NCBI GenBank assembly: GCA_034190875.2 | Contig: CM067358.1 | Location: forward strand, 71,437,180 to 71,501,179 | Length of the DNA: 64,000 bases | Reading direction: 5' to 3' | Origin: Urechis unicinctus | Lineage: Eukaryota; Annelida; Polychaeta; Xenopneusta; Urechidae | Shown here: in pieces, positions 37,476 to 40,400 of the stretch | How the letters are laid out: each line of letters opens with the position of its first letter | How positions within the stretch are numbered: position 1 is the stretch's first letter | Made by a program: the position numbers and the translations under genes | Notes under the pieces: generated by a model | What the model was told of the DNA's origin: nothing | Databases searched by the model: none | The model's input: only the letters and a program-made list of their open reading frames with translations

Positions 37476-40400
37476 CTGGTAATGCAAACACCACAGATAG
37501 GAATAGAAGCGAATCAAGTACCATACTGAACTATCATTAGGTTCATTAATGAAGATTATGGTGTGTCTAATTTCCACTCACGCTTTCTGCTTCCTCATTC
37601 TTATGTTGCACAGAATACCTATTGTTAGGCCCATGGCAAGCATGACCCCAGATGCCACCCCGAGTCCCATACCCAGACCAGTCTGGAAACTGTCACCAAC
37701 AACGCCGATTGCAGCTGAAGTTGAAGAGACTGACAGAACTGCACAGACATAATCCGTACAACCATTAAAAAACCCACCATGGAATATACATATATATATA
37801 TATATATATATATATATATATATATATATATATATATATATATAGATATATATAGATATATATAGATATATATATATATATATATATATATATATATATC
37901 TAGATATAATATATCTATATATAGAGAGATCTATATATATATATATCTATATATATATATATATATATATCTCTATCTCTATATATATATCTCTATCTCT
38001 ATATATATCTCTATCTATATCTCTCTCTATATATCTCTCTATATATATATCTCTATGTTTTATATGTATCTTTGTTTGTCTCTGTATCTTTGTTTATATC
38101 TCTCTATATCTCTCTCTCTATATATATATATCTCTATATCTCTATATCTATATATATATATATATTTGTCTTTGTATATGTGTAAGTGTTCATGTGTATT
38201 GAGGCAGGAATTAACACAACACTGTTGGACTAATACCATCTTGCCTTACCTGTGCTGCAGTTGTCTAGATCAGTGGCTCCCTCTTCCAGCGTCGTCCATC
38301 CTTCGGGGCATGGTTGACAGGATGGCTGTCCCTCGTCCGACTGGAAACTTCCGATTTGACACAGATGGCAATAACCTCCCTCGCTGTACTTACCCGGCGG
38401 ACAATTTACTGTTGGTTTACAGGCCACACATTAACAGAGAGAAAAGTCACTTTGTTATCAAACTTGGACACGAGCAATACAATGAAGAGCGAACATCCAG
38501 TGATTTCTTGAGAGCCACTACGCACCACAGAAGCCGCGCTGGTTGGCCATGGCGTCCTCACATAAACCACGAGCTTCCTGATAGAGACTTAGCGGTAGCG
38601 GGAAGTAAGTTGTGCCTCCAACAGACAGCCCCAAAGAGCCGTTTGTAATCAAGTCTTGAAAATCAGCCGCAAACGTTTCCATACTCAGTAGAAAGAAAAC
38701 CCACTCCGACAAAGCTTCTTCGGCTGATACAGCAGAAACAACGAGAGCACGTGTATGCTGCAAGAGACAGTTCATGAAAGCTATCCACGGCGTCTTCAGC
38801 AATAAGCATGGCTAGAACTGCAGGCCCTACATAGTAAGAACTGACGTATACTATACGGAGCTACGTGACAGATTACTGACCCAGTGTCTCGTTGTAGATA
38901 TCAGCAGAGAGAACATTCGACCCTTCTAACACCGCACTGAGGGTGATTGTCAACTGGTAAGTGGACGTGTCGGAGCGCTTCTGCCGACCGGGAGAGTCCA
39001 GCTTAGTGGTGGTCACTTCCGTCTGACATAGGGAATGTTGAACACAGACGGAGCTGTTAGCAGTCTGAAAAAATACACAGAAAAAGACTATAAGCATCGC
39101 GGAACATACACACGAAAGAGCTCTCGGCAGCCTGAAAACATACACACGAAGGAGCTCTCGGCAGCCTGAAAACATACACACGAAAGAGCTCTCGGCAGCC
39201 TGAAAACATACACACGAAAGAGCTCTCGGCAGCCTGAAAACATACACACGAAAGAGCTCTCGGCAGCCTGAAAACATACACACGAAAGAGCTCTCGGCAG
39301 CCTGAAGACATACACGAAAGAGCAATTGGCAGCCTACAGCCGTACACACGAACGAGCTAATGGCAGTCTGTAGACATACACACGATAGAGCTATTGGCAA
39401 TCAGAAGACACACACGATAGAGCTATTGGTAATCAGAAGACAGACAGACGAAAAAGAAATTGGCGGCCAGAAAACATACACATAAACGAGCTATCGGCAG
39501 CCTGAAAACATACACACGAACACCAGCATGACTAGGGCATTGTGGTCATCTATCCTTGTAACGTACACATTATCCCGTTCAGTTGGCTGGTATCAACGAC
39601 CATTCATTGTGTAGCTTCGAAAAGGCATTACGGTGACTGGTCCGTAAACGTAGGTGTCATTGTTTATACAGGTGAGTCATTGTTGATTATAATCCGTACG
39701 TGACATGTTATTTCTGCAATGATATGTTATTGTCCAGAACATGATTACTAATGCATTGTTGCTCTCTGGTAGTATGTGGTATATTCATTACTTAGCAGTT
39801 AGACTGCAATACAAACTTATACGCCATTAGCAAACAAAAATACAAAATAGCAAAGCATTGATATTAAGGATCCACCTGTATCAATTGGTCTTCCATTGAA
39901 CTGACACTCCCTTGTGTAGCCGGTAATTCCATCAGAAAGCTGTTCTTCTGTACCATACTTCGTGGGGTGCTCATTTCTGTGAATGGGTGGACAATACAAC
40001 TAACGCAAGAACAACCCAAGCGTTGGAATTACCAGCAAAGTGATACCATTTATCTATTGTTGTGTATTTATTATGAATGTGCTTTTTCTCTTTACATTTA
40101 AACGTCATTGACTGAATGCAATCCTACTTGTGCATCGCGGTAATTTGGCTTTAGGATTGCCAACCAGATGGGACCAAGCGTAGCCTGTATCTTTCCCACA
40201 TTGGTATTTTTCGGCTGGTGAAAACTCGAACGTTCGACCGCTTTGACAGCCTATAGTACATGTTATTAGAATCCCGTCATCCGTACAATTTGGAACCGAG
40301 CCAAATTGATAAGGCAACGTAGGGCATACTGCAAAAAAAAAAAATTGGCATAAAAACCTTCAAGCCTTGTTCTTATGTGACGGTCAATATCGTTTGTGTT

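What the first reader, a model, noticed from the sequence alone, without database searches (positions are those of the whole stretch)
39061..39515. A minisatellite built from tandem copies of a gene's own 3' splice site
Each 34-bp unit holds a pyrimidine tract, CAG and the first ~20 nt of exon 23 (compare TTTTCAG|GCTGCCGAGAGCTC with TTTTTTCAG|ACTGCTAACAGCTC). About a dozen potential acceptors are therefore stacked upstream of the real one. The minus frame stays open through the array to 39400, and because 34 is 1 modulo 3 the acceptors cycle through all three phases. Using different units would add variable peptide or shift frame just before a furin site.
Basis: partly seen in the sequence, partly recalled or inferred. 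Interest (0 to 1): 0.78.

Follow-up and report, generated by a model that had tools for sequence, protein, structure and literature searches.

The report
Tandem copies of a splice acceptor
Just before one exon of an animal surface-protein gene, the 3' splice site and first bases of that exon are repeated about a dozen times; this kind of repeat ("mirage") is already known from amphioxus, and nothing found here shows that the extra copies are used.

Summary
A 34-bp minisatellite (39060-39522) runs up to the acceptor of the exon at 39064-38881. The real acceptor is its terminal copy, in register. Homology reaches about 14 nt into the exon, not 20: no other window position scores as high. In the window copy nine upstream units keep an AG.

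The same array sits at the same acceptor in three paralogous segments on two other scaffolds, with 9-23 units. Acceptor and exon are conserved in both paralogs that keep the exon whole. In the window copy six of nine decoys shift frame into early stops. A truncated copy that lost its real acceptor keeps array AGs as well as the others (21 of 22).

Best reading: a "mirage" minisatellite, described in amphioxus Adh3, troponin C, globin and PGBD5 genes, where splicing is reported undisturbed (passages). It is largely neutral; the terminal acceptor is normally used. Contig sizes do not fit Branchiostoma (sizes recalled), so it may extend the phenomenon. Variable-peptide splicing is possible but unsupported; no RNA data were available.

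The parts
39065..39522 (-). 34-bp minisatellite: partial first unit plus 13 full unit rows, each pairing about 14 nt of exon-23-like sequence with a pyrimidine-rich tract and usually AG; the last row ends in the real acceptor
   Evidence: TRF; unit decomposition
39132..39301 (-). five consecutive units, four identical and one with a single change: probably a recent local expansion
39064..39065 (-). real 3' splice junction of exon 23 (TTTTTTCAG|ACTGC), the terminal array copy
   Evidence: acceptor AG conserved in C10 and C12b, lost in truncated C12a; PWM 9.5
38881..39064 (-). exon 23 (TANSSVCVQHSLC...ETL), phase 0 start; its first 14 nt match the array unit
39876..39976 (-). exon 22 (MSTPRSMVQ...DQLIQ), ends in phase 0; this frame has more synonymous changes than the other two in five of six pairs of gene copies and ties with one of them in the sixth
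39065..39875 (-). intron 22 (donor CAG|GTGGAT), which holds the array
38975..38986 (-). RQKR, furin-like site (motif recalled); RRKR in C10 and C12b, QRKR in C12a
40128..40328 (-). exon 21, cysteine-rich sushi-like module by eye (no Pfam sushi match), ends in phase 1

Best explanation
It is a 'mirage'-type minisatellite. A segment spanning the last ~20 nt of intron 22 and the first ~14 nt of exon 23 was duplicated in tandem, by slippage or unequal exchange, most likely before the gene itself was duplicated. It has since gained and lost units separately in each gene copy, with a recent homogenised block in the window copy. The spliceosome normally uses the terminal, real acceptor, and the upstream units are intronic and largely neutral. 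Shown: register, homology, four gene copies with different unit numbers, conservation of the real acceptor and exon (2 of 2 copies with a whole exon) but not of the open frame. Inferred: the mutational mechanism, age before the duplications, normal use of the terminal acceptor, near-neutrality.
For: Real acceptor is the terminal unit in 34-bp register in W, C10 and C12b, and follows a shortened 25-nt unit in C12a. Exon-side 14 nt unmatched elsewhere in the window. The array query hits the window and three paralogous copies of this gene in a 1.19-Gb assembly and nothing else reported (the tool scores best candidates only, so this is a lower bound). Unit rows 13, 13, 9 and 23 in W, C10, C12b, C12a. 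W interior has neighbouring units at 1.00, 1.00, 1.00, 0.97 identity. Edge units agree by order across copies more than in 1972 of 2000 random orders (statistic chosen after seeing the units). Exons 21-23 and the real acceptor are conserved between W, C10 and C12b. Phase-0 open frame upstream of exon 23 is 336 nt in W but 99, 123 and 96 nt in C10, C12b, C12a. Other, purely intronic arrays of the gene also persist in paralogs, so persistence alone needs no function. Same architecture is published in amphioxus (passages).
Against: No RNA evidence on acceptor choice. By a generic matrix several decoys are as good as genuine acceptors: up to 9.0 against 9.5 in W, 9.0 and 9.3 against 9.4 in C10, and 9.0, 9.1 and 13.8 against 7.7 in C12b. 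The unit-final A and G are kept in 0.91 and 0.95 of units against a column mean of 0.83, which could hint at constraint, though columns 4, 17, 20 and 28 are as well kept. Homogenisation is seen in W only: within-array identity is 0.775 in W but 0.684, 0.653 and 0.663 in C10, C12b, C12a, no higher than the cross-copy mean of 0.687. Repeats at human exon-intron boundaries often do give alternative transcripts, and the amphioxus paper grants that its repeats could act as cryptic sites (passages). Direction (boundary to array, or array unit recruited as boundary) is not resolved: no array-free relative was found.
Confidence: 0.76

Rival explanations
1. Array acceptors are used as alternatives, adding 45-101 array-coded residues or shifting frame before the furin-like site.
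For: Nine AG-bearing unit-end decoys in W with matrix scores 3.7-9.0; three of the nine lie in frame with a frame open for 336 nt; in C12b three decoys outscore the real site. Repeats at exon-intron boundaries of human paralogs give alternative transcripts (passages).
Against: The long open frame is not conserved in paralogs, though short in-frame decoys remain possible in C10 and C12b; six of nine decoys in W give early stops; published amphioxus cases report undisturbed mRNA (passages).
Confidence: 0.1
2. The exon's 5' end was recruited from a pre-existing array: the last unit's acceptor became the exon boundary, or the intron itself arose from tandem duplication as in the published mirage model of intron gain.
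For: An internal homologous module of the same gene (exon 48414-48176) appears to have no intron at the matching place, on a weak pairwise alignment, E 0.011; the published model links mirages to intron gain (passages).
Against: No array-free or intron-free orthologue was found; the donor side of intron 22 shows no unit-like sequence (read by eye).
Confidence: 0.12
3. Chance: a pyrimidine-rich minisatellite that merely resembles an acceptor and happens to abut one.
For: Any acceptor has pyrimidines and CAG, so the intron half alone is weak evidence; only the exonic 14 nt are independent.
Against: Exonic 14 nt: 0 of 126,750 window positions on the two strands score as high; 34-bp register kept in three copies; same site in four copies.
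Confidence: 0.02

Closest known systems
Amphioxus 'mirages' (Adh3, globins BflGb6/BflGb9, PGBD5, troponin C)
   Same: Minisatellite-like tandem copies spanning an intron-exon boundary; many units keep AG; unit number differs between copies (there, haplotypes). From passages of PMC3087553 and PMC3902484; the Adh3 and troponin C papers themselves were not seen (Adh3 not held).
   Different: Different gene; scaffolds of 71-91 Mb do not fit Branchiostoma chromosomes (sizes recalled); the array is shared by four gene copies; interior homogenisation is clear in one of four copies only; no RNA evidence here.
Variable internal tandem repeats at exon-intron boundaries of human segmental-duplication genes (De Grassi and Ciccarelli 2009 [authors recalled], PMC2812944, passages read)
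   Same: About 30-bp minisatellites at exon-intron boundaries whose number varies between recent paralogs.
   Different: There, transcripts show the repeat retained or spliced out, with novel introns; here no transcript evidence, and the unit copies an existing acceptor.
Intronic minisatellites linked to splicing: TERT VNTR6-1 (PMC11830802, listing and start of abstract) and C. elegans (PMC4039745, listing and start of abstract)
   Same: Intronic minisatellites that the papers' titles or abstracts connect with splicing.
   Different: Neither paper was read; whether their units hold a splice site was not checked.

Membership tests
Mirage minisatellite | Tandem repeat whose unit spans an exon-intron boundary | tested here: met
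Mirage minisatellite | Many, not all, units keep the splice signal | tested here: met
   AG in 50 of 58 unit rows; leaving out the terminal row of each copy, 47 of 54
Mirage minisatellite | Copy-number instability | tested here: inconclusive
   13, 13, 9 and 23 rows between four gene copies; individuals or haplotypes not available
Mirage minisatellite | Concerted evolution inside the cluster, edges left out | tested here: inconclusive
   Seen in 1 of 4 copies: W interior units 0.97-1.00 identical; within-array means 0.684, 0.653, 0.663 in C10, C12b, C12a are no higher than the cross-copy 0.687. Edge order shared across copies, 28 of 2000 permutations as high
Mirage minisatellite | Regular mRNA splicing is not disturbed | not testable with these tools
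   no RNA data held
Mirage minisatellite | Host is a cephalochordate (the published cases seen) | tested here: inconclusive
   assembly 1.19 Gb, scaffolds 71.7, 74.6 and 90.8 Mb do not fit Branchiostoma as recalled; no COX1 match in the assembly to help name the species

The most novel reading that the evidence does not exclude
Outside cephalochordates, tandem copies of a 3' splice site have been carried through the duplications that made four copies of one gene, and they act as a reservoir of ready acceptors from which the exon boundary, or even intron 22 itself, was taken, so that these paralogs catch a minisatellite in the act of moving an exon's start.
Probability: 0.1. Interest if true: 0.65.

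Novelty: new member of a known kind. Interest (0 to 1): 0.36.

Why it matters
It suggests that splice-site minisatellites may not be peculiar to amphioxus and can outlive gene duplication, giving a set of paralogs (9 to 23 units, acceptor intact or lost) in which to ask how the spliceosome picks one acceptor among many near-identical ones, and whether such arrays seed new exon boundaries.

Tried and rejected
Protein homologues: exon 23 alone (no candidate) and a 1297-aa composite gene model, region 905-1215 (2673 candidates, none at E <= 0.01); the collection is perhaps poor in animal proteins. Branch-point scan gave no consistent site across the four copies. AG retention as evidence of selection was rejected because the copy with a lost real acceptor retains array AGs as well (21 of 22, terminal row left out). 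A model in which exon 22 ends in phase 1 and so needs a phase-1 array acceptor was considered and dropped: the other frame (MSTPRSMVQ...) is open, joins both neighbours and has more synonymous changes than the remaining frames in five of six pairs of copies, tying with one (three each) in C12b-C12a. Its coding score alone was low, 1.1. Other arrays of the gene: I merged the TRF rows by hand into 27 arrays; of the 13 within 37.0-58.1 kb only this one straddles an exon edge, and an 18-bp one lies inside the last coding exon. That rests on my own exon list: the script had started one exon at 42804, 8 bp inside the 32-bp array at 42797-43016, and I set its start by eye at 42732. An alternative in-frame acceptor inside exon 23 (CAG at 39023-39025 in W) is absent in C10 and C12b, present in C12a. 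Species naming by COX1 failed.

Full report
Observation. The minus strand of 37.2-58.1 kb holds a multi-exon gene with sushi, HYR, ephrin-receptor-like, EGF and thrombospondin-1 modules above Pfam's cut-offs and laminin-G-like and TIL matches below them, a hydrophobic stretch read by eye as a transmembrane segment, and a PPxY-bearing tail; it resembles SVEP1-like proteins (recalled, not tested). TRF finds a 34-bp array at 39060-39520, 13.7 copies, 82% matches.

Relation to the splice site. A wrap-around alignment of the gene-sense strand gives a partial unit and 13 full unit rows; the last row ends in the real acceptor and the exon follows in register. A profile made from the 58 array rows of four gene copies, the exon itself left out, scores the exon's first 14 nt at 15.1 bits; no other window position on either strand reaches this (0 of 63,389 and 0 of 63,361), nor does any of 3,920 other minus-strand AG sites. 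At 16 and 20 nt the match fades: 7 and 6 positions, then 11 and 10, score as high, though still none of the 3,920 AG sites. So the unit carries about 20 nt of intron end and about 14 nt of exon start. The intron half alone proves little, since any acceptor has pyrimidines and CAG.

Paralogs. The assembly is 1.19 Gb in 926 contigs, and the window lies 164 kb from the end of C17. The array query reports the window and four further matches, which are three other gene copies: C10, and two on C12 in opposite orientation with their arrays about 5 kb apart. The tool scores best candidates only, so this is a lower bound. Over 38486-40450 the main alignments to the window are 75-87% identical, introns included. 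Exon 23 as protein finds the same four copies and no others at E <= 0.001. C12a (L007) breaks off inside exon 23 and its acceptor reads CTG instead of CAG; its exon-23 stretch carries the most amino-acid changes. The other two keep the acceptor and exons 21-23. Synonymous changes in the chosen frame exceed those in both other frames in 3 of 3 pairs for exon 21, in five of six pairs for exon 22 (tie in C12b-C12a) and in four of six for exon 23 (ties in W-C10 and W-C12b); the counts are small.

Array history. Full unit rows number 13 (window), 13 (C10), 9 (C12b) and 23 (C12a), the row that ends at the real acceptor included. Units at the same ordinal from the array edges resemble each other across copies more than in a random order: 28 of 2000 permutations reached the observed value; I chose this summary after seeing the units, so it is modest evidence. 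In the window copy five consecutive units are nearly identical (1.00, 1.00, 1.00, 0.97), which points to a recent expansion; the other three arrays show no homogenisation (within-array means 0.684, 0.653, 0.663 against a cross-copy mean of 0.687). Hence the array is most likely older than the gene duplications and has changed length since. Gene conversion between copies could mimic part of this and was not tested.

Splicing. A generic acceptor matrix (typed from general knowledge, not trained on this species) gives the real site 9.5, 9.4 and 7.7 in W, C10, C12b. In W the nine unit-end decoys score 3.7-9.0, six of them 7.4; in C10 two score 9.0 and 9.3; in C12b three outscore the real site (9.0, 9.1, 13.8). 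Fifteen other predicted acceptors of the gene score 3.5-10.3, but the script had kept only sites above 3.0; two further exon starts in that list, set by eye, did not carry AG and were not scored. The decoys are therefore plausible on paper. In W they lie 67, 101, 135, 169, 203, 237, 269, 303 and 437 nt upstream; 135, 237 and 303 are in frame. The other six shift the frame and meet a stop in exon 23 at the latest, TAA almost at once in one frame (67, 169) and TGA about 50 nt in for the other (101, 203, 269, 437; sequence). The phase-0 frame upstream of exon 23 is open for 336 nt in W, 99 in C10, 123 in C12b, 96 in C12a, so the long open frame is not a conserved property; the other two minus frames in W are open for 292 and about 246 nt of the array too. 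In C10 and C12b short in-frame decoys (99 nt; 60, 99 and 123 nt) remain possible.

Constraint on the AG. The last two columns of the unit are kept in 0.91 and 0.95 of units against a mean of 0.83, but columns 4, 17, 20 and 28 are kept as well. Leaving out each copy's terminal row, AG is kept in 8 of 12, 11 of 12, 7 of 8 and 21 of 22 units in W, C10, C12b and C12a (counted). The broken copy keeps them as well as any, so I see no sign that selection holds the decoys in place or removes them.

What is known. [quoted passage not shown] PMC3902484 (passages) adds PGBD5 and cites troponin C. The Adh3 paper itself was not held. PMC2812944 (passages) reports repeats at exon-intron boundaries of human segmental-duplication genes with alternative transcripts and novel introns. 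PMC2891723 (passages) treats tandem duplication as a source of new intron positions in Drosophila. In the listings of the six literature searches that ran I saw no report of mirages by that name outside cephalochordates; many subscription papers are not held.

Verdict. It belongs to a described kind. The suggested variable-peptide function lacks support, though only RNA can exclude it. Which came first, boundary or array, stays open: a weak alignment suggests that an internal homologous module of the same gene lacks an intron at this place, which leaves room for the intron-gain reading.

Noticed in passing
window 37237-37294: An 18-bp tandem repeat inside the last coding exon (RHNAPH-type residues in the cytoplasmic tail); in paralog L006 (1354-1399) TRF reports 24 bp x 1.9, so the tail probably varies in length between copies.
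   Followed up: partly
window 42797-46322: Large intronic 31-32-bp arrays (over 3 kb) whose relatives also occur in paralogs L006 (8484-8563, 8692-9392) and L008 (8423-8593, 8834-9274) with different lengths.
   Followed up: partly
L007 and L008 (C12:7.09-7.10 Mb): Two gene copies in inverted orientation with their arrays about 5 kb apart; one (L007) breaks off inside exon 23 next to a TA-rich array and has lost the exon-23 acceptor.
   Followed up: partly
window 48176-48414 and 46390-47480: An upstream module of the same gene (basic RKKK stretch, ephrin-receptor-like) may be an internal duplicate of the module at 38.2-40.3 kb, apparently without an intron at the place of intron 22 (weak alignment).
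   Followed up: partly
window 11265-14170: A 30-bp (90-bp higher order) degenerate array of nearly 3 kb in the other half of the window.
   Followed up: no
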